Below the pieces are notes generated by a model, which saw only the letters and a list, made by a program, of their open reading frames with translations, was not told where the DNA came from and made no database searches. Shown here one piece after another: positions 42,991 through 55,429 of a stretch of DNA of 64,000 nucleotides (position 1 is the first letter of the stretch; the number at the start of each line of letters is the position of its first letter). The stretch lies in the NCBI RefSeq assembly GCF_018531375.1, contig NZ_JAHBOH010000001.1, positions 1,860,001-1,924,000 of the forward strand, given 5' to 3'. A program made the position numbers and the translations under genes. This DNA comes from Cellulomonas fulva (GTDB lineage: Bacteria > Actinomycetota > Actinomycetes > Actinomycetales > Cellulomonadaceae).

Positions 42991-43911
42991 GTGGCTCAGC
43001 TGATCGCCGCCCCGCCGGCGGCGGCGCCTCGCGCCCGTCGGCGCGGCCTGCGCCGTACCTGGACGGGCTGGGGGTTCGTCGGACCCTTCATGCTCGTCTT
43101 CGCGCTCGTGTTCCTGGCGCCCATCGCCTACTCGATCTACCTGAGCCTGTTCCGCAAGCAGCTCGTCGGCGGCAACTCGTTCGTGGGCGTCGACAACTAC
43201 GTCGCGGCGTTCCAGGACGCCCAGTTCTGGTCCGGCTTCGGGCACGTCGTCGCGTTCCTGCTGGTGCAGGTGCCGATCATGCTCGGGATCGCGCTGCTCG
43301 TCGCGCTGGCGCTCGACAGCGGCCGGCTCTACGGGAAGAACTTCTTCCGCATCTCGATCTTCCTGCCCTACGCGGTGCCCGCGGTCGTCGCGACCCTCAT
43401 GTGGGGGTTCATGTACGGGACGCGGTTCGGGCTCGTCGGGAACATCAACCGCGCGCTCGGCGTCGAGCTGCCGAACCCGCTGTCGCCCGACCTGGTCCTG
43501 GCGTCGATCGGCAACATCGTGACGTGGGAGTTCGTCGGCTACAACATGCTGATCTTCTACTCCGCCCTGCGTGTGGTGCCGGCGAGCCTCTACGAGGCCG
43601 CGGAGATCGACGGCGCGGGCCAGTGGCGCGTCATCCGCTCGATCAAGCTGCCCGCCATCCGCGGCGCCCTGGTGATCGCCACGATCTTCTCGATCATCGG
43701 CAGCTTCCAGCTGTTCAACGAGCCCAGCATCCTCAAGAGCCTGGCGCCCAACGCGATCACCACGTACTTCACGCCCAACCTGTACGCGTACTCGCTGTCC
43801 TTCTCCGGCCAGCAGTACAACTACTCGGCGACCGTCGCGATCGTCATGGGGCTCATCACGATGGTCATCGCGTACGTCGTCCAGCTGCGCGGCATGCGGA
43901 AGGAGGTCTGA
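42991..43911 (+). CDS. ABC sugar importer permease, MalF/UgpA type
   Basis: A 306-residue inner-membrane permease with six predicted transmembrane segments; it lacks the long periplasmic loop of enteric MalF. The EAA loop that contacts the ATPase reads YEAAEIDGAGQWRVIRSIKLP. GTG start with AAGGAG upstream and an operator just before it. First gene of permease, permease, binding protein, beta-galactosidase. No ATPase gene is in the window, so a shared MsiK-type ATPase encoded elsewhere is likely, as is usual for actinobacterial CUT1 importers. Confidence 0.92.
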   Translation: MAQLIAAPPAAAPRARRRGLRRTWTGWGFVGPFMLVFALVFLAPIAYSIYLSLFRKQLVGGNSFVGVDNYVAAFQDAQFWSGFGHVVAFLLVQVPIMLGIALLVALALDSGRLYGKNFFRISIFLPYAVPAVVATLMWGFMYGTRFGLVGNINRALGVELPNPLSPDLVLASIGNIVTWEFVGYNMLIFYSALRVVPASLYEAAEIDGAGQWRVIRSIKLPAIRGALVIATIFSIIGSFQLFNEPSILKSLAPNAITTYFTPNLYAYSLSFSGQQYNYSATVAIVMGLITMVIAYVVQLRGMRKEV

Positions 43912-43912
43912 C

Positions 43913-44866
43913 ATGGCGACCGAGACCGCATCGGCACCCGTCCCGACGACGCGCGGGGCCGGCGGCCGGAGCGCGGGGCGGCGAGCCGTGCGCCTGCGTC
44001 CGTCCGTCGCGCGCGGCTCGCGCCGCAACCGGCGCAGCCCGCTCCTGACCGCGCTCACGGCGATCGTGCTGCTCTACAGCATCGTCCCGCTGGTCTGGCT
44101 GCTCATCAACGCCACCAAGTCCCAGTCGGACCTGTTCGACTCGTTCGGCCTGTGGTTCGGCGACGGGTTCGCGCTGTGGGACAACGTGCGGGACACGCTG
44201 ACCTACGACGACGGGATCTTCCTGCGCTGGTTCGGCAACACGATCCTCTACGTGGTGCTCGGTGCCGGCGGAGCGACCGCGCTCGCCGTCCTGGGCGGCT
44301 ACGGCCTGGCGAAGTTCCAGTTCCCAGGCAAGCGGTGGGTGTTCGCGGTCGTGATCGGCGCGGTCGCCGTGCCCGGCACCGCGCTGGCCGTCCCGACGTT
44401 CCTCATGTTCAGCAAGATGGGCCTGACGAACACGCCGTGGGCGGTGATCATCCCGTCGCTGATCTCGCCGTTCGGCCTGTACCTCATGTGGACCTTCGCG
44501 GCCGAGGCCATCCCGACGGAGCTGCTCGAGGCGGCGCGGATGGACGGGGCGGGGGAGGTGCGCACCTTCTTCCGCATCTGCCTGCCGCTGCTGGCCCCCG
44601 GCATCGTCACGGTGCTGCTGTTCACCATGGTCGCGACGTGGAACAACTACTTCCTGCCGCTGATCATGCTCAAGGACCCCGCGTGGTACCCGCTGACCCT
44701 GGGGCTCAACGCGTGGAACGCCCAGGCCGCGACCGCCGGCGGCCAGGCGGTGTTCAACCTGGTGATCACCGGGTCCGTGCTCACGATCCTGCCGCTGATC
44801 GTCGCCTTCCTGTTCCTGCAGCGCTACTGGCAGTCCGGCCTCGCGGCCGGGTCGGTCAAGGAGTAG
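43913..44866 (+). CDS. ABC sugar importer permease, MalG/UgpE type
   Basis: A 317-residue permease, the partner of the preceding gene. A basic N-terminal stretch of about 40 residues is followed by six transmembrane segments. EAA loop: LEAARMDGAGEVRTFFRICLP. The ATG is one base past the previous stop and its ribosome site (GGAAGGAGG) lies inside the previous gene. The N-terminal extension is Arg-rich and longer than in many homologues. It forms the translocation pore with the MalF-like subunit. Confidence 0.92.
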   Translation: MATETASAPVPTTRGAGGRSAGRRAVRLRPSVARGSRRNRRSPLLTALTAIVLLYSIVPLVWLLINATKSQSDLFDSFGLWFGDGFALWDNVRDTLTYDDGIFLRWFGNTILYVVLGAGGATALAVLGGYGLAKFQFPGKRWVFAVVIGAVAVPGTALAVPTFLMFSKMGLTNTPWAVIIPSLISPFGLYLMWTFAAEAIPTELLEAARMDGAGEVRTFFRICLPLLAPGIVTVLLFTMVATWNNYFLPLIMLKDPAWYPLTLGLNAWNAQAATAGGQAVFNLVITGSVLTILPLIVAFLFLQRYWQSGLAAGSVKE

Positions 44867-44883
44867 CCGCTCCGGAGCCACCA

Positions 44884-44898
44884 CCGACGTCACGTCGG
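44884..44898 (+). promoter_or_regulatory. hairpin between permease and binding-protein genes
   Basis: CCGACGT-C-ACGTCGG, 17 bases after the second permease stop. It may protect or separate the transcript so that the binding protein is made in excess. Confidence 0.4.
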
Positions 44899-44912
44899 AC
44901 AGGCCGCCCGAT

Positions 44913-44924
44913 GGTCACGTCACC
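44913..44924. promoter_or_regulatory. LacI operator O4 (GGTCACGTCACC) before the binding-protein gene
   Basis: Eleven of 12 positions match the palindrome and it has ATGG/CCA flanks like the other sites. It implies a second controlled promoter in front of the binding-protein gene. Confidence 0.7.
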
Positions 44925-45001
44925 ACGCAGTCCCACACCCAGTCCCACACCCAGCCCCACCGAGAAGACACCTCAAGAGACAACGAAGTGAGAGGACAGT
45001 C

Positions 45002-46333
45002 ATGACCACCAAATTCCGCACGGCCGCGCGCACCGTCGCCGTCGCCGGGGTGCTCAGCCTCGCCCTGGCCGCGTGCAGCGGTTCCGGCGACGAGGGCACG
45101 ACGAGCCCGAGCGGGGACTCGACGGGCGCCGCGGGCGACCTGTCCGGCTCGCTCACGGTCTGGGCCTGGGAGCCCACGCTCGAGAAGGTCGTCGCCGACT
45201 TCGAGACCGCGCACCCGGACGTCGACATCGACCTCGTCAACGCCGGCACGGGCAACGACCAGTACACGGCGCTGCAGAACGCGATCGCGGCCGGCTCGGG
45301 CGTGCCTGACGTCGCCCAGGTCGAGTACTACGCGCTGCCGCAGTTCGCGCTCGGCGACTCGCTCGCCGACCTCACCGAGTTCGGCGCGGCCGACCTCGAC
45401 GGCACCTTCACGCCCGGCCCGTGGGCCGCGGTCAAGCAGGGCGAGGGCGTCTACGGCCTGCCGATGGACTCCGGGCCGATGGCGCTGTTCTACAACAAGG
45501 ACGTGTTCGACAAGGCAGGCGTCGACGTCCCGACGACGTGGGACGAGTACCTCGAGGCGGCGCGCGCCATCCACGAGGCCGACCCGAACGCGTACATCGC
45601 GAACGACACGGGCGACGCCGGCTTCACGACGAGCATGATCTGGCAGGCCGGCGGCCAGCCCTACTCGGTGGACGGCACGAACGTCTCCGTCGACTTCACG
45701 GACGAGGGCACGACGAAGTTCGCGGAGCTGTGGCAGCAGCTCGTCGACGAGGACCTGCTGGCCCCGATCAGCTCCTGGAGCGACGAGTGGTACCAGGGCC
45801 TCGGCAACGGCACGATCGCGACCCTGACGATCGGTGCGTGGATGCCGGCGAACCTCGAGTCCGGCGTGCCGGACGGCGCGGGCAAGTGGCAGGTCGCGCA
45901 GATGCCGCAGTGGGAGGCCGGTGGCGCCGCCACCGCCGAGAACGGCGGCTCGTCCCTCGCGGTGACCAAGGCGTCCCAGAACGCGGAGCTCGCCTACGAG
46001 TTCGTCAAGTACGCCGACGCCGGTGAGGGCGTGCAGACGCGGATCGACGGCGGCGCGTTCCCGGCCACGACCGCCGAGCTGAACTCCGACGAGTTCAAGA
46101 ACAAGGAGTTCGAGTACTTCGGCGGCCAGAAGGTCAACGAGGTGCTGGCCCAGTCGGCCGCCGACGTCGTCCCGGGCTGGCAGTACCTGCCGTTCCAGGT
46201 CTACGCCAACTCGATCTTCAACGACACGGTCGGCCAGGCGTACGTCAGCGACACCACCCTGACCGACGGCCTCGCCGCCTGGCAGCAGGCGTCGATCGAC
46301 TACGGCAACCAGCAGGGCTTCACGGTCGACTGA
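45002..46333 (+). CDS. extracellular sugar-binding lipoprotein of the ABC importer
   Basis: A 443-residue solute-binding protein of the CUT1 family. Signal peptide with lipobox ALAAC (lipidated Cys25), then a Ser/Gly/Thr linker and the binding fold beginning GSLTVWAWEPTLEKVVADFE, with GVPDVAQVEYYALPQF, YGLPMDSGPMALFYNKDVF and AENGGSSLAVTKASQNAELAYEF. It should capture oligosaccharides at the cell surface for the two permeases. The neighbouring GH35 and GH30 genes suggest galacto-oligosaccharides. ATG with GAGAGGAC upstream. Confidence 0.93.
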   Translation: MTTKFRTAARTVAVAGVLSLALAACSGSGDEGTTSPSGDSTGAAGDLSGSLTVWAWEPTLEKVVADFETAHPDVDIDLVNAGTGNDQYTALQNAIAAGSGVPDVAQVEYYALPQFALGDSLADLTEFGAADLDGTFTPGPWAAVKQGEGVYGLPMDSGPMALFYNKDVFDKAGVDVPTTWDEYLEAARAIHEADPNAYIANDTGDAGFTTSMIWQAGGQPYSVDGTNVSVDFTDEGTTKFAELWQQLVDEDLLAPISSWSDEWYQGLGNGTIATLTIGAWMPANLESGVPDGAGKWQVAQMPQWEAGGAATAENGGSSLAVTKASQNAELAYEFVKYADAGEGVQTRIDGGAFPATTAELNSDEFKNKEFEYFGGQKVNEVLAQSAADVVPGWQYLPFQVYANSIFNDTVGQAYVSDTTLTDGLAAWQQASIDYGNQQGFTVD

Positions 46334-46507
46334 CCCGGCCCGGCGGTGGTGGCGGCTCCGTCCCGCCCCCACCGCCGCCGGCCCGGGCGGTCTCCCGCCG
46401 CCCGGGCCGGACCACCCCGCACGTCCCGCGGGCTGGGTCCGGGCGACCGGCGACGCCGGATCGCCTCCACCAGCCTTCACCAGCCTTCACCGAGGAGCAC
46501 CCTTCCC

Positions 46508-48271
46508 ATGGCCGCGTTCGAGATCGGCGAGCAGGACTTCCTGCTCGACGGCGAGCCGCTGCAGATCCTGTCCGGGGCCCTGCACTACTTCCGGGTCCAC
46601 CCCGACCTGTGGGCGGACCGCATCCGCAAGGCCCGGCTCATGGGGCTCAACACCGTGGAGACGTACGTCGCCTGGAACGCCCACGCGCCGGAGCGCGGCG
46701 TCTTCGACCTGACCGGCGGGCTCGACCTGGGCCGGTTCCTCGACCTCGTCGCGGCCGAGGGGATGCACGCGATCGTCCGCCCCGGCCCCTACATCTGCGC
46801 CGAGTGGGACAACGGCGGCCTGCCGGCGTGGCTCATGGCCACGCCCGGCGTGGGCGTGCGCACGGCCGAGCCGCAGTACCTGGACGCCATCGCCGGCTTC
46901 TACGACGAGGTCCTCGCGGTGGTCGCGCCCCGCCAGGTGACCCGCGGCGGACCCGTGCTCATGGTCCAGGTGGAGAACGAGTACGGCGCGTACGGCGAGG
47001 ACGCCGCGTACCTGCGCGCGCTCGTCGCGATGGTCCGCGAGCGCGGCATCGACGTCCCGCTGACCACGTGCGACCAGGCCGACGACGAGATGCTCGGCCG
47101 AGGTGGCCTGCCGGAGCTGCACAAGACCGCGACGTTCGGGTCCCGCAGCCCCGAGCGCCTCGCGACCCTGCGCCGGCACCAGCCGACCGGCCCGCTGATG
47201 TGCATGGAGTACTGGGACGGCTGGTTCGACTCGTGGGGCGAGCAGCACCACACCACGGACCCCGCCGCCGCGGCGGCCGACCTCGACCTGCTGCTGGGCG
47301 CCGGTGCCTCCGCGAACCTCTACATGTTCCACGGCGGGACGAACCTGGGCTTCACGAACGGGGCCAACGACAAGGGCACCTACCTGCCGATCACGACGTC
47401 GTACGACTACGACGCCCCGCTCGCCGAGGACGGCACGCCGACCGCGAAGTACGACGCGTTCCGTGCGGTGATCGCGCGCCACGCACCCGTGCCCGGCGGC
47501 CGCCCGCCCGCCCGTGCCGCCGCGCCCGTCCTCGACGTCGCGCTCGAGCGCCGGGTGCGGCTCGCCGACGCGCTGCCGTTGCTGGTGGCGGACCCGAAGT
47601 CGTTCACCTACCTGCCCACCGCGGACGAGGTCGGGCAGTGGTCCGGCTTCACCCTCTACCGGACCGACGTGGCGGCCGACGACGGGCTGCTGTCGGTCGA
47701 CGAGGTGCGCGACCGTGCGGTCGTGCTCCTCGACGGCGAGCCGGTCGGCACCCTCAGCCGGACGGAAGGGCTGACGACCGTGAGCCTGCCTCCGCGCGCG
47801 GGCGTGCTCGACGTCGTCGTCGAGGACCAGGGCCGCGTGAACTACGGCCCGCGCATCGGCGAGCCGAAGGGCCTCGTCGGGCACGCGCGGACCGCGACCC
47901 GGCCCGTGACGCGCTGGGAGGTGGGCGGCCTCCGCCTCGCGAGCCTCGACCCCGACCTCCTGGCCCAGCTGCGCGCGGCCGAGGCGCAGGACGTCGCGCC
48001 GGTCGCCGGGCCGTCCTTCTGCCACGCGACCTTCGCGTCGGTCGCGGGCGCCGACCACTTCCTCCGGCTCGACGGCTGGTCGAAGGGCCTGGTCTGGCTC
48101 AACGGCACGCTGCTGGGTCGCTACTGGTCCGCCGGACCGACCCGCACCACCTACGTGCCCGGGCCGCTGGTCCGTGAGCGCAACGAGCTCGTGGTGCTCG
48201 AGCTGCACGGCGCCCGGACCGGGACCGCCGCGTTCGTCGCTGCTCCCGACCTCGGTCACACCGAGCGCTGA
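46508..48271 (+). CDS. GH35 beta-galactosidase
   Basis: A 587-residue glycoside hydrolase family 35 enzyme without a signal peptide, so cytoplasmic. The family signature GPYICAEWDNGGLPAWL, the acid/base Glu158 in VQVENEYGAYG and the nucleophile Glu234 in MCMEYWDGWFDSWG are present, followed by MFHGGTNLGFTNGAN. C-terminal beta domains end with WLNGTLLGRYWSAGPTRTTYVP. It should release terminal beta-galactose from imported oligosaccharides. The ATG is preceded by GAGGAGC. Last gene of the importer operon; related enzymes act on beta-1,3-, 1,4- or 1,6-linked galactose, and linkage is not readable here. Confidence 0.93.
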   Translation: MAAFEIGEQDFLLDGEPLQILSGALHYFRVHPDLWADRIRKARLMGLNTVETYVAWNAHAPERGVFDLTGGLDLGRFLDLVAAEGMHAIVRPGPYICAEWDNGGLPAWLMATPGVGVRTAEPQYLDAIAGFYDEVLAVVAPRQVTRGGPVLMVQVENEYGAYGEDAAYLRALVAMVRERGIDVPLTTCDQADDEMLGRGGLPELHKTATFGSRSPERLATLRRHQPTGPLMCMEYWDGWFDSWGEQHHTTDPAAAAADLDLLLGAGASANLYMFHGGTNLGFTNGANDKGTYLPITTSYDYDAPLAEDGTPTAKYDAFRAVIARHAPVPGGRPPARAAAPVLDVALERRVRLADALPLLVADPKSFTYLPTADEVGQWSGFTLYRTDVAADDGLLSVDEVRDRAVVLLDGEPVGTLSRTEGLTTVSLPPRAGVLDVVVEDQGRVNYGPRIGEPKGLVGHARTATRPVTRWEVGGLRLASLDPDLLAQLRAAEAQDVAPVAGPSFCHATFASVAGADHFLRLDGWSKGLVWLNGTLLGRYWSAGPTRTTYVPGPLVRERNELVVLELHGARTGTAAFVAAPDLGHTER

Positions 48272-48401: not shown

Positions 48402-48719
48402 ATGGGTGACGGTTTCGAGGCGACGGCCGAGTCGTTGGACGCGTCCGGGTCGGCACTCCTGCAGGTCCTGTCCACGCTGGAGCCCGCGGACCCGGCGTCC
48501 TGGCCGCACGGCGTCGCGACCTACGGCTTCAGCTCGCTCGCGACCGCGATGGACGAGGCCCAGACGAGCCTGGCGACCCGGGTCGACGACGTGCAGACCG
48601 TCACGGTCGGGTGCGCGATCCGGCTCCAGGACAGCGCGCGCGCGTACCGGGAGGCCGACGAGCGGGTCCAGGCGCTGTTCCGCCGGGTCGCGGCGCTCCT
48701 GACGGGCGCCGGCGGATGA
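48402..48719 (+). CDS. small WXG100/ESX-like helical protein
   Basis: A 105-residue, almost wholly helical protein without signal peptide or membrane segment. The size, the two helices broken by PASWPHGVATYGFSS, and the ending RAYREADERVQALF (YxxxD-like, as in type VII secretion signals) fit the WXG100/DUF-type partners of type VII secretion substrates. It is the first gene of a four-gene run whose second gene encodes a calpain-like protease with a similar helical N-terminus; stop and start overlap (ATGA). It may be the heterodimer partner or chaperone. The call rests on size, helicity and context. Confidence 0.6.
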   Translation: MGDGFEATAESLDASGSALLQVLSTLEPADPASWPHGVATYGFSSLATAMDEAQTSLATRVDDVQTVTVGCAIRLQDSARAYREADERVQALFRRVAALLTGAGG

Positions 48720-49930
48720 GCGTGCTGCCGGGCGACGTCGCCGCCGTCGGCGGCACCGCGAGCGCGGCGGACCGCGCCGCACGTGCGGTCGCGGACACCG
48801 CGACGCTCGTGCGGGACGAGCGCCGCGCGCTCGACTGGACCGGCGCCGCCGCCGACGCGTGCGACGCGCGGCTCGCGGCCGTCGCCGACGGGGCGGGCGT
48901 CGTCGCGACGAGCCTCGCGACGATCTCGACCGCGCTGGCGACCTACGCCACGGAGCTCGCGGCGGCGCAGGCCGAGGCGCAGCTCGCGGACGCCGAGCGG
49001 CGCCGCACCGAGGCGCGCCTCGCCGCCGAGCCGCTCGACCTGTCCGCCTGGTTCGCCCACCTGCGCGCGCGGGTGCGGGTGTGGGGCGCCGTGCAGGGAG
49101 CCGAGGCGAGCGCGGACCGTGCGGCCGCGGCGGTGCGCGCCGCGCTGGGCACGGGTGCCGACGCGATCGGCGCGCTGGCGGACGCCGCGCGCCGCGACAC
49201 CGACGTGCCGGACGACGTCCTGACGGACGGGTCGACGGAGCAGGGGGACGTCCAGCAGCGCGGGATCGGGTCCTGCTACCTGCTCTCGTCGCTCATGGGC
49301 CTCCTGCGCACGGACGACGGCGACCGGCTCCTGCGGGAGAACGTCCGCTGGGACGAGCTGCAGCAGGGCTACTGGGTGACGCTGTACGTCGACGGCGAGC
49401 CCACCGAGGTCTTCGTCGACGGGGTCTACGACGGCGGGGTGCGGCAGCCCGCGGGGTCCGTGGGTCTGGTCTCGCTCTACGAGGCGGCGGTCGGCATCCA
49501 CCTGGGGTACGCCGACCTCGACGACGGCGGGTACCCCGAGGACGCGATGGAGCTCGTCACGGGCGAGGACGCGCGGGCCTACTCCACCGACGACTCGTGG
49601 TGGCCGTGGGACGACGGGTTCTCCGACCACCGGGACGACATCGCCGGCCGGCTCGACGACGGCGCGTCGGTGACCGCGGACACGGGTGGCCGCCCGGACG
49701 TCGACGACCTGCATGTGCAGGTCGAGCGCGACGGCGCGCTGGTCGACGTCGAGGTCGACGTGGTCGGCGGGCACGCGTACATGGTCGAGCGGATCGACGA
49801 CGACGGGGGAGTCTGGGTGCGCAACCCGTGGGGTCAGGGCAACGGCGCCGACGGCGGTGAGGTGTTCCGACTGGACGCCGACGAGTTCGCGCGGGTGTTC
49901 GGGCGCGTGACCGTCTCGGAGACGCCGTGA
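48716..49930 (+). CDS. WXG100-like N-terminus fused to a calpain-like cysteine protease
   Basis: A 404-residue protein. Residues 1-110 are a helical hairpin of WXG100/ESX type (VGGTASAADRAARAVADTATL, then LDWTGAAADACDARL). Residues about 170-404 match the calpain (C2) catalytic fold: QQRGIGSCYLLSSLMGLL with Cys187, GGHAYMVERI with His353, and VRNPWGQG with Asn370, in the right order and spacing, plus FVDGVYDGG and SLYEAAVGIHLGYADLDDGGY. No signal peptide. This design fits a type VII-secreted protease effector or a cytoplasmic regulatory protease. No secretion ATPase is in the window. GTG of the next gene overlaps its stop. Confidence 0.8.
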   Translation: MSVLPGDVAAVGGTASAADRAARAVADTATLVRDERRALDWTGAAADACDARLAAVADGAGVVATSLATISTALATYATELAAAQAEAQLADAERRRTEARLAAEPLDLSAWFAHLRARVRVWGAVQGAEASADRAAAAVRAALGTGADAIGALADAARRDTDVPDDVLTDGSTEQGDVQQRGIGSCYLLSSLMGLLRTDDGDRLLRENVRWDELQQGYWVTLYVDGEPTEVFVDGVYDGGVRQPAGSVGLVSLYEAAVGIHLGYADLDDGGYPEDAMELVTGEDARAYSTDDSWWPWDDGFSDHRDDIAGRLDDGASVTADTGGRPDVDDLHVQVERDGALVDVEVDVVGGHAYMVERIDDDGGVWVRNPWGQGNGADGGEVFRLDADEFARVFGRVTVSETP

Positions 49931-50256
49931 CCGGCGCACCGGACCAGGCCGCCGCCGGTCAGCCGGGCCGCGCTCCGCAGCGCGAACCGCGCGGGCCCGA
50001 GCGGTTCGAGCTGCGGCGCGGGACCCAGCGGGAGGTCGAGGGCGCGCTGGTCGGGGTCGTCGGCCTCGACGCGGTCGACGGGAACCTGCGCGCCCGCCTG
50101 GCGGTCGGGCTGGCGGGGCAGCGTCACCGCGCGTGGGTGGACCGCGGCCAGGCGCTCGCGGTCGCCGGCTGGGGCACGCTCGCGCTGTGCGACGTCGTGG
50201 CCGCCGGCGCCGGGCGCGCGGTGCTCGAGTTCGTCCCCGAGCCGGCCCGCGCGTGA
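49927..50256 (+). CDS. small protein of unknown function in the calpain operon
   Basis: A 109-residue protein whose GTG start overlaps the calpain stop (GTGA). The first 30 residues are Pro/Ala/Arg-rich. The rest (LRRGTQREVEGALVGVVGLDAVDGNLRARLAVGL, then WGTLALCDVVAAGAGRAVLEFVPEP) looks like a small beta-rich domain. No membrane helix, no catalytic motif. Because it is translationally coupled to a protease gene, an inhibitor or immunity role is possible, but this is inferred from position alone. Confidence 0.6.
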   Translation: MTGAPDQAAAGQPGRAPQREPRGPERFELRRGTQREVEGALVGVVGLDAVDGNLRARLAVGLAGQRHRAWVDRGQALAVAGWGTLALCDVVAAGAGRAVLEFVPEPARA

Positions 50257-50717
50257 GCCAGTCGGCCGGGGCCGGGGCCGGGGCCGGGGCCGGGAGCGGG
50301 GCTGAGACCGAGCCGGGTCGGCGGCGGGCCGCGCCCGTCCCGGTCGTCGTCGCGCTGGTCGTGGTCGTCGTGGTCGTCGCCGCGGCGGCGGTCGCGCTCG
50401 CCGCGCGCTCGGGCTCGTCGGGCTCGTCGGGACAGACGTGCGACCGTACCGCTGCGGCACCCGGAGCGGGCACGGTGGACAGCGTGAGCCAGGGCGCGCA
50501 GCTCGTCGTGGGCGACGTGCGGCTCGGGATCGGCGGCGTGTCCGACGACGGCTGCGCGGTGGACGTGCGCGGCGACGTCGGCCGGGTCGAGGTCGGTGAG
50601 CGGGTCGAGGTGGCCGGCGTGCCGGTGATGCTCCTGGCCGTCGAGCGGCGGGACGGCCAGGACGACGAGGCAGGGGGCGCGTTCGAGGCGACGTTCTGGG
50701 TGGGCGCGGCCGGGTAG
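50253..50717 (+). CDS. small membrane-anchored protein in the calpain operon
   Basis: A 154-residue protein, GTG start overlapping the previous stop (GTGA). A Gly/Ala-rich start, then RRR and one very hydrophobic helix (about 29-51, VVVALVVVVVVVAAAAVALAA), then an exported C-terminal domain with two cysteines (GQTCDRTAA and DDGCAVDV) that could form a disulfide. The domain (DVRLGIGGVSDDGC, then VEVGERVEVAGVPVMLLAVER) is strand-rich and resembles in pattern the end of the preceding protein. It could be the membrane-side partner or an external inhibitor of the calpain-like protease. Confidence 0.6.
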   Translation: MSQSAGAGAGAGAGSGAETEPGRRRAAPVPVVVALVVVVVVVAAAAVALAARSGSSGSSGQTCDRTAAAPGAGTVDSVSQGAQLVVGDVRLGIGGVSDDGCAVDVRGDVGRVEVGERVEVAGVPVMLLAVERRDGQDDEAGGAFEATFWVGAAG

Positions 50718-50803: not shown

Positions 50804-53800
50804 TCAGCGCACGACCCGGAACGACGCCGTCGCCGAGGTCGACGGCACCGCGGTCGACGTGCCCGCGTACACGGCGCGGACCGTGTACGTGCCGGGGGTG
50901 AGCCGGGGGAGCGTGACGCTCGCCGCCGAGCGCGACAGCGTCGCGCCGCGGACGGCGACCTGCTTGCCGCCCCGGTACACGCGCACCGTGACCTTGCCGG
51001 TGATCGTGGCCGCAGGCTTGCCCGTGACCTTGACCGCCACGGTGGCACGCGCGGTCGACCGGACGGTCGACGCGACGCGCACCGTGGTGACGGTCGTCCG
51101 CCGCACCGTGACCTTGGTCGTCGCCGACGAGGCCCGCACCCCGGTCTGACCGGCGTACCTCGCGGTGACCGTGTACGTGCCCGGCGTGGTGAGCGCGGGC
51201 AGCCGCACCGCCGCCCGGCCGCCGGTGAGGCGCTGCGTCAGCGTCTTCACCGTCGTCGAGCCGCGCTTCACCGTGACGGTGACCTTGCCGGCGGCCGGCG
51301 ACGTGCCGGTCCGCACCGTCACGTTCGCGACGGGACGGGTGGTCGTGGTCGGCGCGGCCGGGACCACCTTCAGCGTCGTCGTGGAGGCGACCACCCGGAC
51401 GACGACCGTGACCGCGACGGTGGCCGACGAGGACGGCGCGACCTGGGTCTGCGCCGCAGCGGCGGGCCGGAACGCGGCCGAGAGCGCGTGGGTGCCCACG
51501 GCCAGGTCGTCGAGCGTGAACCGGGCGGTGCCGTCGGCACCCACCTCGGCCGACGCCACCACCGCGGCACCGTCCCGCAGCTCGACCGTCCCGCCCGCGA
51601 GCGCGGACGCGGCGTCGGACGTGACCGTGGCGGTCACGCGCACCGTCGCGCCCTCCACGACCTTCGTGGCGGAGGTGACCAGCGCGACCGAGCTGGCGGC
51701 CCGGCCGTCGAGCACCTCGACGGGCGCCGACGTGCTCGTCGTCGGGCCGAAGCCCTCCGCCGTCGCGGTGACCGTGACGGTGACCGCGGAGCCGACGTGC
51801 TCGAGCCCCGGGGTCCAGGTGGCCGAGGTGGCGCCCGGCACGTCCTGCCCGTCGACCGCCCACTGGTACGTGAGCGCGGCGTCGACCGGGTCGGTGGTCG
51901 CCGCGGCCGTCAGCTCCTGCCCGGCGACCGGGCTGCCCTCGACGTGCACCGCCGTCAGGCCGACGGTCAGGTCCAGCACGACGGTGTACGTCGTCGCGGA
52001 GCCGTCGACCGCCGTGACCGTGAGCGTCACCGTGTCGCCCGAGCGCTCCGTCGTCACGGTCGCGGACGCGTCGGTCGGGACACCGACGACGCGCGGCGCG
52101 GAGCCGCGTGCCGGGACGTCGTACGCCGTGGTCTGCGCGTCGAAGCCGCTGACGTCGACGCCGTCCACGGACAGCCGGGCCAGGGAGGACACCGACGAGG
52201 CGGCAGGCGCCACCGCGTCGATCTCCGTCTCGGACACGATCAGGTGCGTCGCGTCCCGTGCGGCGAGCACGAAGCGCACGGCGTCGGCCGTCGCCCCGGA
52301 CAGGTCCACGGTGGCCACGGGCGCCGTCGCCTGGTCGGCCAGCGTCACGGGCGGGGAGAGGGTCTGCCACGCCTGCGTGCCCGCGTCCCGGTACTGCGTG
52401 GTGACCGTCGTGGGCCAGGTGGACGACGAGCCGTCCTTGAAGAAGTAGAGGCGCGCCTCGGTCAGCACGCGCTCCTGCGCCAGGACGTACGTGAGCGTGT
52501 CGCTCGTGTTCTTGGTCCCGCCGCGCCAGTTGGACCAGCCCTTGTCGGTCCGGTCCCCGTCGACGGTCCGGGAGGCCGGGTACCCCGGCTCCGTGTAGGT
52601 CGCCGACGGCGTCGACGTGAGCGCGACGTTCTCGGCGGTCGTCGCCGCGGGCGTCACGACGACGTGCAGCGTCGCGTCGACCGCGACCGACCCGGTCGCC
52701 TCGGCGCTCACCGTGCCGGCGACCGTGACGACGCCCGGCTCGGCGAACGCGTCGGCGTCGAGCGCGTCGAGGTCCCAGGTGACCGGGACGTCGAAGCGCG
52801 CGGAGGCGGTGCCGACCTGCGCGGGCACCGTCGCCGGAGCGGCGCGCCCGACGAGGCCGACGCTCGTGCCGGCGACGACGGTCATCGAGACCGGGTCGGT
52901 GGCCACCACGTCGCCGACCTGGACCACTGCGGTCGCGGTGACGGCGTTGCCGTAGATGTCCGTGCCGGTGGCGGTGACCGTCACCGTGCCGGCGCGGTCC
53001 CAGGCGTCGGCGGGGGCGTCCCACGTGACGGGCGTCGCGACGCCGTCGCCCCAGGCGTACGTGGGAACGATCGTCGCCGGGAGCGCGGCGGGGGTGCCGA
53101 TGGTCGTGCGCAGCGAGAGCGGGCTCGTCGTGGGCGTCGCGTCGGTCGACCGGAACGTCCAGAGCTGGTTGGCGCCGCCGTTGGACCCGTAGATGCCGAC
53201 GGGCGCGCCGTCCGCGGTGGACTGCCCCCCGACGTCGAGCGAGGACGCGGTGGCGTCGTTGACGAGCGACCACGTGGTGCCGTCGAGCGTCACCAGGTGC
53301 CAGGTCGTCGTCGCCGCCGACCGCGCGGTCTCGAGCGAGACCTGCTCGAACCGGGTGCCGGCGCTGGTGGCGCCCAGGAAGCTCCCGTCGGAGGCGTTCT
53401 CGAGCGCGAACGTCCGCCGCGACGTGGGGGCGCCGGCGGCGGTGGTCTCGTGCACCACCCACTCCTGCGCGGGCAGCGCCGCCGCGGTGGTGGCGAGGGC
53501 CTTGATCTGCAGCGTGGCGGCGTCCGAGCGCGCGAGCGCCTTGCCGCTCTGCACGCCGACGGCCTGGTAGCGACCGCCGTCGACCAGCGGGTTCGCCTCG
53601 TCGGCCACACCGGAGACGCCGTCGACGACGAACGTCACCACGGACCGCGCGGGGATCGTCAGCGTCGCGGTGCCGCTCGCGGCGTCCACCGCGACGGGCG
53701 TGCCCTCGACCAGCGCGGTCGACGTGTCGTCCACGTCGGCCGCCTGCGTCGTGACCACCGGCGTCACGGTGGCGTCGGACGCGATCGTGCCGAACCCGGT

Positions 53801-55429
53801 CAGGTCGACCGTGACGGTCTGCTCGGTCGTCGCGGCGTTGGTGTGCACGATGCTCGCGCCGGTGCCGTCCGCGTCGACGGCGGCCGTCGAGGCCGCGTCG
53901 TCCGTCGGCACCAGGCGGTCACCGGCCGTGATGTAGTGCATGAAGTTGCGCATCGCGTCGAACTTGGAGTTCGTGACGATGTGGCAGTCCTCGACGGAGG
54001 CGACGTCGTCGCCCGCCGCGAGGGCGTCCGCGACCCGGCGCTGCGACTTGAACCCGACGGCGCTCGCGGCGTCTGCCGGGTCGAGCACGTCACCCGCGGC
54101 GTCGACGTACTCGCAGTCGAAGTCGACGAAGACCGAGCCCCAGTTGAGCTTCTCGCCCTTCTCCATGTTGTAGAAGTCCTCGACCTCCTGCCACAGCACG
54201 TACGCGTCCGGCTGGAGCGTGCGCAGGTCGGAGGTGATCTTCTGGGCGAGGCCCAGGGCGCCGTTGATGCTCACGGGGTCGAAGCCGGAGCCGACGAAGT
54301 CGCCGCCCGTCTCGGACATCCACAGCGTCTTGTCGGCCGCCAGCGCGTAGTCGCGGGCCTGGGCGATGCCGTTGGTGCCGTAGCTGTGGACGTTGATCTG
54401 CCCGACGTCCGCGCGCGTGCCCTCGTCGTACTGCGCCCAGGCGGTGTTGAAGTTGCCGGGGTTCGTCTCGTCGTTGGCCGAGACGACGGCGTCCGACGAG
54501 GACGCCGCGAGGTCGTCGGCGAGCAGCCCGACCAGGCTCTGCTGCTGGCCCGCGCCGGTGCCGGGGCAGATCTGCGCGCCCTCCTGCGGCTTCTTGACGG
54601 CGTTCGTGAAGGGCGTGATGCCGTCGGCCAGGCGTCCGGTCGGCGTGGACCAGTAGCCGGTGCACGGCTCGTTGAACGGGTCGACGGACTGGAACTCGAC
54701 GCCGTAGGTGTCCTCGAGGTGCTCGACCACCCGGGTCAGGTACGCCGTGAACTTGGCCGGCACGCCGTCGGTGGCGAGGACCTGCTCGCTCGTCGCGCTC
54801 GCGCCGCCCGAGGTGTAGCCGGAGCTCGTCATGAACCACGGCGGGGAGTTGGCGAAGCCCTCGAGCACCAGGTCGTCGCGCTCGTTCGCGAGCTTCTCGA
54901 GCCACCAGCGCTGGGTCGCGTCCTGGGACCAGTCGTAGCTGGCCTCGTCGTCGGGGTCCCACGCGGCGGCGAGCGCCCGGTGGTCCGCGAGGTTCGTGGT
55001 GAGCGCGCCGTAGAGGCTGTCCGGGTCGGTCGACGTGTCCTGCGCCCAGTAGCCGTCGACCGCCGCGCCCTGACGGAAGTAGTCGCCGACGTCGGACGCG
55101 CGGCCACCGCCGACGTTGTAGCGGGCCACGTTCATGTTGAGCCCGTCCGCGCCGAAGACGAGCTCGAACAGCTCGTCGCGGAGCGCGTCCGGGTAGTCGC
55201 CCGTCGCGTTGGCGAACCAGACCAGGGAGTTGCCCCAGCCCTCGAACGGCGCGCCTGCGTACGCGGGGTTGGGGGTGATGGTGACCGACGACGCCGCGGT
55301 AGCGGGGGCGGCCGCGACGGCGGTGACCGCGACGGCACCGGAGGTCGCGAGCGCCGCGCACAGCACGGAGGCGAGGGCGGATCGGGGTCGGGGTCGTGCC
55401 GTGGCCTTGCCGGGGCTCCTGCGTGTCAT
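50804..55429 (-). CDS. secreted multidomain GH30 glycosidase, probable endo-beta-1,6-galactanase
   Basis: A 1541-residue secreted enzyme. Signal peptide 1-46 (cleavage near ATAA). The GH30 catalytic barrel and side beta-domain (about 48-605) start FEGWGNSLVWFANATG; acid/base Glu254 in VDPFNEPCTGYW and nucleophile Glu373 in TLWMSETGGDF, with INVHSYGT and YVLWQEVEDFYN. These strings fit subfamily 5 endo-beta-1,6-galactanases better than glucosylceramidases or xylanases. Then: ricin-like lectin region (610-758, ending NQLWTF), two Ig-like Big_4-type modules (773-930), a discoidin/F5-8C module (934-1074), cadherin-like and Ig-like modules to 1238, and a C-terminal run of Ig-like repeats. No LPXTG anchor. 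AGGAAGG precedes the ATG; two LacI-type operators lie 52 and 77 bases upstream. Confidence 0.85.
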   Translation of the reverse strand: MTRRSPGKATARPRPRSALASVLCAALATSGAVAVTAVAAAPATAASSVTITPNPAYAGAPFEGWGNSLVWFANATGDYPDALRDELFELVFGADGLNMNVARYNVGGGRASDVGDYFRQGAAVDGYWAQDTSTDPDSLYGALTTNLADHRALAAAWDPDDEASYDWSQDATQRWWLEKLANERDDLVLEGFANSPPWFMTSSGYTSGGASATSEQVLATDGVPAKFTAYLTRVVEHLEDTYGVEFQSVDPFNEPCTGYWSTPTGRLADGITPFTNAVKKPQEGAQICPGTGAGQQQSLVGLLADDLAASSSDAVVSANDETNPGNFNTAWAQYDEGTRADVGQINVHSYGTNGIAQARDYALAADKTLWMSETGGDFVGSGFDPVSINGALGLAQKITSDLRTLQPDAYVLWQEVEDFYNMEKGEKLNWGSVFVDFDCEYVDAAGDVLDPADAASAVGFKSQRRVADALAAGDDVASVEDCHIVTNSKFDAMRNFMHYITAGDRLVPTDDAASTAAVDADGTGASIVHTNAATTEQTVTVDLTGFGTIASDATVTPVVTTQAADVDDTSTALVEGTPVAVDAASGTATLTIPARSVVTFVVDGVSGVADEANPLVDGGRYQAVGVQSGKALARSDAATLQIKALATTAAALPAQEWVVHETTAAGAPTSRRTFALENASDGSFLGATSAGTRFEQVSLETARSAATTTWHLVTLDGTTWSLVNDATASSLDVGGQSTADGAPVGIYGSNGGANQLWTFRSTDATPTTSPLSLRTTIGTPAALPATIVPTYAWGDGVATPVTWDAPADAWDRAGTVTVTATGTDIYGNAVTATAVVQVGDVVATDPVSMTVVAGTSVGLVGRAAPATVPAQVGTASARFDVPVTWDLDALDADAFAEPGVVTVAGTVSAEATGSVAVDATLHVVVTPAATTAENVALTSTPSATYTEPGYPASRTVDGDRTDKGWSNWRGGTKNTSDTLTYVLAQERVLTEARLYFFKDGSSSTWPTTVTTQYRDAGTQAWQTLSPPVTLADQATAPVATVDLSGATADAVRFVLAARDATHLIVSETEIDAVAPAASSVSSLARLSVDGVDVSGFDAQTTAYDVPARGSAPRVVGVPTDASATVTTERSGDTVTLTVTAVDGSATTYTVVLDLTVGLTAVHVEGSPVAGQELTAAATTDPVDAALTYQWAVDGQDVPGATSATWTPGLEHVGSAVTVTVTATAEGFGPTTSTSAPVEVLDGRAASSVALVTSATKVVEGATVRVTATVTSDAASALAGGTVELRDGAAVVASAEVGADGTARFTLDDLAVGTHALSAAFRPAAAAQTQVAPSSSATVAVTVVVRVVASTTTLKVVPAAPTTTTRPVANVTVRTGTSPAAGKVTVTVKRGSTTVKTLTQRLTGGRAAVRLPALTTPGTYTVTARYAGQTGVRASSATTKVTVRRTTVTTVRVASTVRSTARATVAVKVTGKPAATITGKVTVRVYRGGKQVAVRGATLSRSAASVTLPRLTPGTYTVRAVYAGTSTAVPSTSATASFRVVR

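What the first reader, a model, noticed from the sequence alone, without database searches (positions are those of the whole stretch)
48402..50717. WXG100-calpain operon with two small coupled partners
Four genes overlap by ATGA or GTGA junctions. The second fuses an ESX-like helical hairpin to a calpain fold with Cys187, His353 and Asn370. Calpain domains are rare in bacteria and are known as cargo of some polymorphic toxins. The first gene could be the secretion partner, and the third and fourth (one soluble, one membrane-anchored with a cysteine pair) look like immunity or regulator candidates. No secretion machinery is nearby.
Basis: partly seen in the sequence, partly recalled or inferred. 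Interest (0 to 1): 0.75.

Follow-up and report, generated by a model that had tools for sequence, protein, structure and literature searches.

The report
Exported calpain-like protease with guard proteins
Four joined bacterial genes appear to make a secreted protein-cutting enzyme related to animal calpains, a helper for its export, and two small proteins, one inside the cell and one anchored in its membrane, that probably keep the enzyme from harming its maker.

Summary
The four-gene operon (48402-50717) is real and kept in five genomes, own included. Gene 2 is a calpain-family (C2) protease: Pfam over cut-off, relatives' profile matches calpain structures at 1e-18, Gln181/Cys187/His353/Asn370 invariant in 17 of 17 rows. 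Its N-terminus has a W-x-G turn; gene 1 carries the YxxxD/E motif of EspC-like ESX substrates (9 of 13 rows). The genome has an ESX type VII locus (EccB, EccC, EccD, subtilase, WXG100 pairs) 56-71 kb away, outside the window. Gene 3 belongs to an unnamed domain family, related to Pfam DUF6406, that travels with calpains: of 16 matches outside the probe that I examined, 15 lay beside one. Gene 4 is membrane-anchored and probably carries the same domain, shown only through intermediates. Best reading: a type VII-exported calpain effector with a cytosolic and a surface inhibitor/immunity protein. WXG100-calpain fusions were known (Rawlings 2015); the partner family was not found in my searches. 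Inhibition and antibacterial use are inferred.

The parts
48402..48719 (+). Gene 1: 105-aa helical EspC-like protein, proposed ESX export partner of the protease
   Evidence: Weak Pfam EspC match (E 0.0038, 18.1 bits, under cut-off 23.5); orthologues precede the calpain gene in relatives
48645..48680 (+). Residues 82-93 of gene 1 (Y-x3-D-x2-h-x3-H), the extended T7SS export motif
   Evidence: YxxxD/E and the extended form in 9 of 13 rows of A2, absent from the 4 most distant; motif definition from passages of PMC3935865
48716..49930 (+). Gene 2: 404-aa protease, ESX-like helical N-terminus plus calpain (C2) domain
   Evidence: Pfam Peptidase_C2 over cut-off; 17-row alignment A1
48836..48844 (+). 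W41-T-G43, the W-x-G turn of the N-terminal hairpin
   Evidence: W-x-G in 13 of 17 rows of A1
49217..49930 (+). Calpain catalytic domain, residues 168-404; Gln181 at 49256-49258, Cys187 at 49274-49276, His353 at 49772-49774, Asn370 at 49823-49825
   Evidence: Profile A5 matches calpain chains of the PDB, best E 1.2e-18; active-site residues invariant in 17 of 17
49927..50256 (+). Gene 3: 109-aa soluble partner protein, DUF6406-related domain; proposed cytosolic inhibitor/immunity protein
   Evidence: No Pfam or NCBIfam match by itself; partner profile matches it at 6.4e-21; family sits beside calpains
50253..50717 (+). Gene 4: 154-aa protein with N-terminal membrane segment, outer domain with a conserved cysteine pair; proposed surface inhibitor/immunity protein
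   Evidence: Translation; orthologues in 4 other genomes; Cys pair in 5 of 5 nearest rows; link to the gene-3 domain only through intermediates; direct match absent (E 3.6)
50337..50408 (+). Predicted membrane segment of gene 4 (residues 29-52)
   Evidence: Read from the translation; the nearest orthologues are also membrane or lipoprotein type

Best explanation
Genes 1 and 2 make an EspC-like/W-x-G heterodimer that the cell's ESX (type VII) machine, encoded 56-71 kb away, exports in folded form, carrying a calpain-family cysteine protease out of the cell, most likely as an effector against neighbouring bacteria. Because the protease would be folded and active before export, gene 3 blocks it in the cytosol, and gene 4, a membrane-anchored outer domain probably of the same family, blocks it at the cell surface (own enzyme on its way out, or enzyme from kin). 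Shown by computation: the calpain domain with intact active site, the partner gene with a conserved export motif, the ESX locus, and the constant pairing of calpains with the gene-3 domain family. Inferred: export, inhibition, the role of gene 4, and antibacterial use.
For: C2 domain and active site. Gene 1 motif; W-x-G in 13 of 17. ESX locus in the own genome. EccC over cut-off in 10 of 10 two-gene carriers of the family against 63 of 211 others, p 1e-5 without correction for kinship. By my reading, calpain genomes with a small helical gene beside the calpain have EccC over cut-off in 16 of 19, those without in 5 of 35 (5 membrane-type genomes and 2 Streptomyces-like ones left out). Partner domain: profile seeded with gene-3 homologues takes 57 of 782 neighbourhood proteins, 55 within four genes of a called calpain gene. 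Searched alone in 221 genomes, 33 matches: 13 are the probe's own rows, 16 others examined with 15 beside a calpain, 4 weak ones not examined. Several loci hold 2-4 partner copies. Precedents, passages seen: staphostatins as cytosolic inhibitors encoded with staphopains and Bacteroides lipoprotein inhibitors (PMC3462683); TelC with membrane-anchored TipC (PMC6193138); Cpe1-Cpi1 protease toxin and immunity (PMC12136450).
Against: No inhibition, export or killing shown; no complex or single-chain model could be made. 16 of 55 whole calpain genes had no partner within four genes by the profile. The window's gene 4 is not matched by the partner profile (E 3.6); of its four nearest orthologues in the searched set two were taken, of three in the second set one; the five-row gene-4 clade against gene-3 rows gives only P 0.0056 (score 20.9, best of 40 shuffles 17.9), and against the bridging membrane rows is no better than shuffles (17.1 against 19.7). 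One partner-domain gene sits beside a predicted hydrolase and not a calpain (G019), one stands alone (G748). WXG100 and EspC models score below cut-off. Three genomes with a helical partner gene lack EccC over cut-off (G059, G060, G686), though G059 and G060 have a WXG100-linked EssC-like ATPase.
Confidence: 0.66

Rival explanations
1. A secreted protease for nutrition or self-remodelling of the envelope; genes 3 and 4 only protect the maker, as staphostatins do, and there is no antibacterial role.
For: The same gene pattern is known for staphopain/staphostatin and Bacteroides C10 proteases (passages of PMC3462683). The operon keeps its place between tuf and rpsJ in G040, G051 and G057 (by gene order and size), and the window organism is rich in sugar-utilisation genes there.
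Against: Patchy presence (16 of 221 genomes with P0002), exchanged N-terminal export modules, truncated extra copies (L099, L205) and partner arrays of up to four look more like effector-immunity loci.
Confidence: 0.2
2. Genes 3 and 4 are export chaperones or adaptors of the type VII cargo and not inhibitors.
For: They are translationally coupled to the cargo gene, and small partner proteins of type VII toxins are known (search listing only: PMC10653861).
Against: In loci whose calpain has its own membrane/pilin-like N-terminus the partners persist as lipoproteins outside the cytosol (5 of 5), and two such genomes have no EccC/EssC-like match at all at 1e-40 (G612, G802). These five calpains lie in one clade of ten rows, so they are not five independent cases.
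Confidence: 0.09
3. An intracellular regulatory calpain, not exported; the N-terminal hairpin and gene 1 only dimerise.
For: No signal peptide on gene 2; the WXG100 match is weak.
Against: YxxxD/E kept in 9 of 9 of the nearest gene-1 rows; EccC association; conserved membrane-anchored partner.
Confidence: 0.05

Closest known systems
WXG100-calpain fusions of Rawlings 2015 (PMC4631099; passages seen)
   Same: WXG100 domain fused to a C2 peptidase, suggested there (text and reviewer) to be type VII exported toxins
   Different: Reported from Herpetosiphon and Segniliparus; the passages seen name no export partner gene and no inhibitor genes (the words operon and Cellulomonas do not occur)
EspC/EspA, CFP-10/ESAT-6 and PE/PPE type VII substrate pairs (passages of PMC3935865; pairing recalled)
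   Same: One small partner with YxxxD/E, one partner with W-x-G, adjacent genes, ESX machinery in the genome
   Different: The W-x-G partner carries a protease domain; curated EspC and WXG100 models score below cut-off
Staphopain-staphostatin and Bacteroides C10 protease-inhibitor operons (passages of PMC3462683)
   Same: Papain-like protease followed by a small beta-rich inhibitor gene; inhibitors can be cytosolic or lipoproteins
   Different: Other protease families and Sec export; no sequence relation tested or seen to the partner domain here
TelC-TipC (passages of PMC6193138)
   Same: Type VII toxin with a membrane-anchored outward-facing immunity protein and several paralogous immunity genes
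   Different: Lipid II phosphatase, LXG, firmicute system; no cytosolic twin of the immunity protein mentioned in the passages seen
Pfam DUF6406 (PF19944), unknown function
   Same: A full DUF6406 protein follows a calpain gene in a Streptomyces-like genome (G770) and is taken by the partner profile at 1e-15
   Different: The Pfam model itself does not match the window's genes 3 or 4

Membership tests
Peptidase family C2 (calpain) | Peptidase_C2 profile match over curated cut-off | tested here: met
   25.7 bits against 23.8; all 17 members of A1 match at E up to 1, best 7.5e-25. The six-frame search of the own genome with the same model gave 19.2 bits, under cut-off, for a part of the domain
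Peptidase family C2 (calpain) | Catalytic Cys, His, Asn with the Gln before Cys | tested here: met
   Q181, C187, H353, N370 invariant in 17 of 17 rows and aligned with calpain-1
Peptidase family C2 (calpain) | Proteolytic activity; calcium dependence | not testable with these tools
   Rawlings 2015 says that bacterial homologues lack the calcium sites (abstract)
ESX (type VII) substrate pair | YxxxD/E after the second helix of one partner | tested here: met
   Y82-x3-D86 in gene 1; 9 of 13 rows. Background 21 of 174 small proteins, gene-1 rows included
ESX (type VII) substrate pair | W-x-G turn in the other partner | tested here: met
   W41-T-G43; 13 of 17 rows
ESX (type VII) substrate pair | Curated WXG100 or EspC profile over cut-off | tested here: not met
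   WXG100 15.0 of 27.3 bits, TIGR03930 20.2 of 44.85, EspC 18.1 of 23.5
ESX (type VII) substrate pair | ESX machinery in the genome | tested here: met
   EccC 827 bits (cut-off 509), EccB 203 (27), EccD 38.7 (30), WXG100 72 and 57 (27.3), subtilase 92.7 (21.8)
ESX (type VII) substrate pair | ESX-dependent export | not testable with these tools
   Needs an eccC deletion and secretome
Polymorphic toxin with immunity | Toxin domain with exchangeable export modules | tested here: met
   Same catalytic domain behind W-x-G hairpins, longer helical regions, or a membrane/pilin-like segment
Polymorphic toxin with immunity | Cognate immunity gene beside it that neutralises the toxin | tested here: inconclusive
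   Constant neighbour shown; neutralisation not testable here
Pfam DUF6406 | Match over the curated cut-off | tested here: not met
   No match for genes 3 and 4; relatives match weakly, best E 9e-4 in L098
Gene-3 partner domain (this work) | Gene 4 of the window matches the partner profile | tested here: not met
   E 3.6; its orthologue in G041 (46% identical) matches at 6.8e-11, so membership is by intermediates only

The most novel reading that the evidence does not exclude
The gene-3 domain family, with Pfam DUF6406 as one branch, is a bacterial counterpart of calpastatin: a dedicated family of calpain inhibitors. It is duplicated so that one copy guards the cytosol and one the cell surface, and its location follows the export route of its protease.
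Probability: 0.42. Interest if true: 0.75.

Novelty: new variant of a known kind. Interest (0 to 1): 0.56.

Why it matters
Bacterial calpains have no settled function; Rawlings 2015 (passages) doubts that any has been characterised biochemically. A partner family found beside them in most loci examined gives a direct test of their role, a likely function for a Pfam family of unknown function, and a possible case of one inhibitor fold placed in two compartments to match a protease exported in folded form.

Tried and rejected
Orphan immunity genes: I expected the partner-domain matches outside known calpain loci to be orphans. Of 11 fetched, 10 had a calpain gene beside them that the single-sequence search had missed. 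The eleventh (G019) sits beside a 551-aa protein with weak hydrolase matches.

Partner location follows export route: the first small gene downstream is membrane type in 5 of 5 membrane-anchored calpains and soluble in 43 of 48 others that have such a gene (of 61), p 9e-5. The five lie in one supported clade of ten rows and need 1-3 changes on the tree, so I do not count this as independent support.

Mobile origin: tblastn of P0002 found nothing in the plasmid and phage collections; in viral contigs 13 stretches matched a pattern and none was confirmed.

Known solved structure for the partner: best E 0.06, not taken as a match. phmmer of gene 2 alone found no PDB chain up to E 1; only the profile did.

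Structure prediction of gene 2 and gene 3 could not be run.

Full report
What is there. The window lies at G000:C1:1860001-1924000 of a 3.74 Mb high-GC actinobacterial genome; the one named relative found is Cellulomonas gelida. Four genes at 48402-50717 overlap by ATGA, GTGA and GTGA and are picked by a codon-usage gene caller. They lie between the translation genes recognised as tuf and the ribosomal S10 cluster (my reading of the translations and gene sizes), with a sugar-transport and glycosidase cluster at the same site in the window. The four-gene set is found in G040, G041, G051 and G057. Between window and G051, codon differences are in part synonymous (23 of 62, 92 of 202, 23 of 42 and 31 of 86 differing codons for genes 1 to 4).

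The protease. Gene 2 (404 aa) matches Pfam Peptidase_C2 at 25.7 bits, cut-off 23.8; the profile of 17 related domains matches calpain structures, best E 1.2e-18, with Cys, His and Asn aligned. Gln181, Cys187, His353 and Asn370 are invariant in 17 of 17 rows, and all 17 members match Peptidase_C2. The single sequence found no PDB chain up to E 1, and the six-frame search of the own genome with the Pfam model scored part of the domain under the cut-off; the call rests on the whole protein and on the relatives.

The export pair. The N-terminus has W41-T-G43; W-x-G is present in 13 of 17 rows. Curated WXG100 and EspC models score below their cut-offs. Gene 1 ends in Y82-R-E-A-D86-E-R-V-Q-A-L-F93, which fits the extended motif that Poulsen and colleagues give for EspC and others (passages of PMC3935865); YxxxD/E is in 9 of 13 gene-1 rows and absent from the four most distant. 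In small proteins of these neighbourhoods the short motif occurs in 21 of 174, the gene-1 rows included.

The machine. The own genome holds EccC (827 bits, cut-off 509), EccB (203 bits), EccD, a subtilase and two WXG100 pairs at about 1837-1852 kb, 56-71 kb from the operon and outside the window. In the family, EccC passes the cut-off in 73 of 221 genomes, in 10 of 10 that carry the two-gene form, against 63 of 211 others (p 1e-5, not corrected for kinship). Over the family and order genomes whose calpain neighbourhood I read, 16 of 19 with a small helical gene beside the calpain pass the EccC cut-off and 5 of 35 without do (grouping by eye; the 5 membrane-type genomes and 2 Streptomyces-like ones left out). 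In four genomes without EccC over the cut-off (G020, G059, G060, G089) the larger EssC-like ATPase has small WXG100-like genes near it (by eye and size).

Genes 3 and 4. Neither matches Pfam over a cut-off or a convincing NCBIfam model. Soluble (A3) and membrane/lipoprotein (A4) partner rows align by hhalign with probability 90%, score 39.2, against 0.3% for the gene-1 alignment and a best score of 12.2 in 200 column shuffles. This signal depends on bridging rows: the close clades alone give 15.4 (P 0.067), and the five nearest gene-4 rows against all gene-3 rows 20.9 (P 0.0056, best of 40 shuffles 17.9). An iterative profile started from gene-3 rows took 59 of 777 neighbourhood proteins, among them two of the four nearest gene-4 orthologues (G041 at 6.8e-11, G051 at 9.9e-5) and many lipoproteins; a second run took 57 of 782, with one of three nearest gene-4 orthologues. 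The window's gene 3 matches the final profile at 6.4e-21; its gene 4 does not (E 3.6). So gene 3 is a firm member, gene 4 a probable one through its G041 orthologue (46% identical).

The partner belongs to the calpain. In the second run 55 of 57 recruited proteins lie within four genes of a called calpain gene (41 directly beside it); the two others are an unpaired copy in G748, fetched because of it, and one (L112) where I called no calpain gene although the six-frame match lies beside it. Of 55 whole calpain genes 39 have a recruited partner within four genes; 16 do not, though some of these have a small lipoprotein gene next to them (L045, L092, L098 and L100 recruited; L086 and L123 only by position). 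The better test is the reverse one: partner rows alone searched in 221 genomes gave 33 matches. Thirteen are the probe's own rows. Of the other 20, five were in loci already known to hold a calpain, eleven were fetched (ten with a calpain beside them), and four weak ones were not examined. A Pfam DUF6406 protein follows the calpain gene in G770, and two more Streptomyces-like loci show the same order (L157, L158). The convincing DUF6406 matches were two (G770 and G748), one of them beside a calpain.

How it probably works. Type VII machines export folded helical pairs (established knowledge, recalled), so the protease would be folded in the cytosol and need an inhibitor there (gene 3), while gene 4 would act outside the membrane, where its conserved cysteine pair (5 of 5 nearest rows) could form a disulphide. 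Staphostatins, Bacteroides lipoprotein inhibitors and the TelC-TipC pair are precedents for the parts (passages). Where the calpain has its own membrane or pilin-like N-terminus, the first downstream partner is a lipoprotein in 5 of 5 loci; elsewhere it is soluble in 43 of 48. These five sit in one clade of ten rows, so this is suggestive only. Partner arrays (up to four copies), truncated calpain copies and patchy presence (16 of 221 genomes by single sequence; 58 of 396 in the order and 6 of 396 in the phylum by profile) favour an effector-immunity reading over a housekeeping protease.

What is known. WXG100-calpain fusions and their likely type VII export were described by Rawlings in 2015 (passages of PMC4631099). 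Zhang and colleagues 2012 has no occurrence of 'calpain' in the part held. My searches for calpain with type VII secretion or polymorphic toxins, for DUF6406, for Cellulomonas with type VII secretion, for calpain-like proteases with inhibitors and for bacterial calpains listed no paper whose title or abstract start describes this partner family; I read passages, not whole papers.

Noticed in passing
L211:4504-5687 (G000:C1 about 294003-295186): A second EspC-like gene with YxxxD (107 aa) overlaps a 287-aa helical protein elsewhere in the own genome: probably another type VII substrate pair.
   Followed up: partly
L047:17736-19295 (G000:C1 about 1847735-1849294): The WXG100 pair of the own ESX locus is duplicated in tandem with identical protein sequences.
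   Followed up: no
L204:2316-5085 (G019): A membrane-anchored partner-domain protein sits beside a helical gene and a 551-aa protein with weak alpha/beta-hydrolase matches, with no calpain: the partner domain may also serve another cargo.
   Followed up: partly
L041, L042, L090, L091, L099, L104-L106, L109, L114, L118 and others: Single-gene W-x-G calpains often have a divergently transcribed lipoprotein of another, unnamed family just upstream; the one scanned against Pfam and NCBIfam had no match.
   Followed up: partly
L117:5622-7661 (G542): Four membrane-anchored partner-domain genes in tandem downstream of a calpain.
   Followed up: no
L205:5116-5541 (G021): A shortened second calpain copy, with the same N-terminal residues as the whole copy upstream, follows the partner gene.
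   Followed up: no
window 42991-48271 and 50804-55366: Sugar ABC-transport genes, a glycosidase gene and a long glycoside-hydrolase-like gene flank the operon at the tuf/S10 site, where G040, G051 and G057 have only the operon and a small gene or none (my reading).
   Followed up: no
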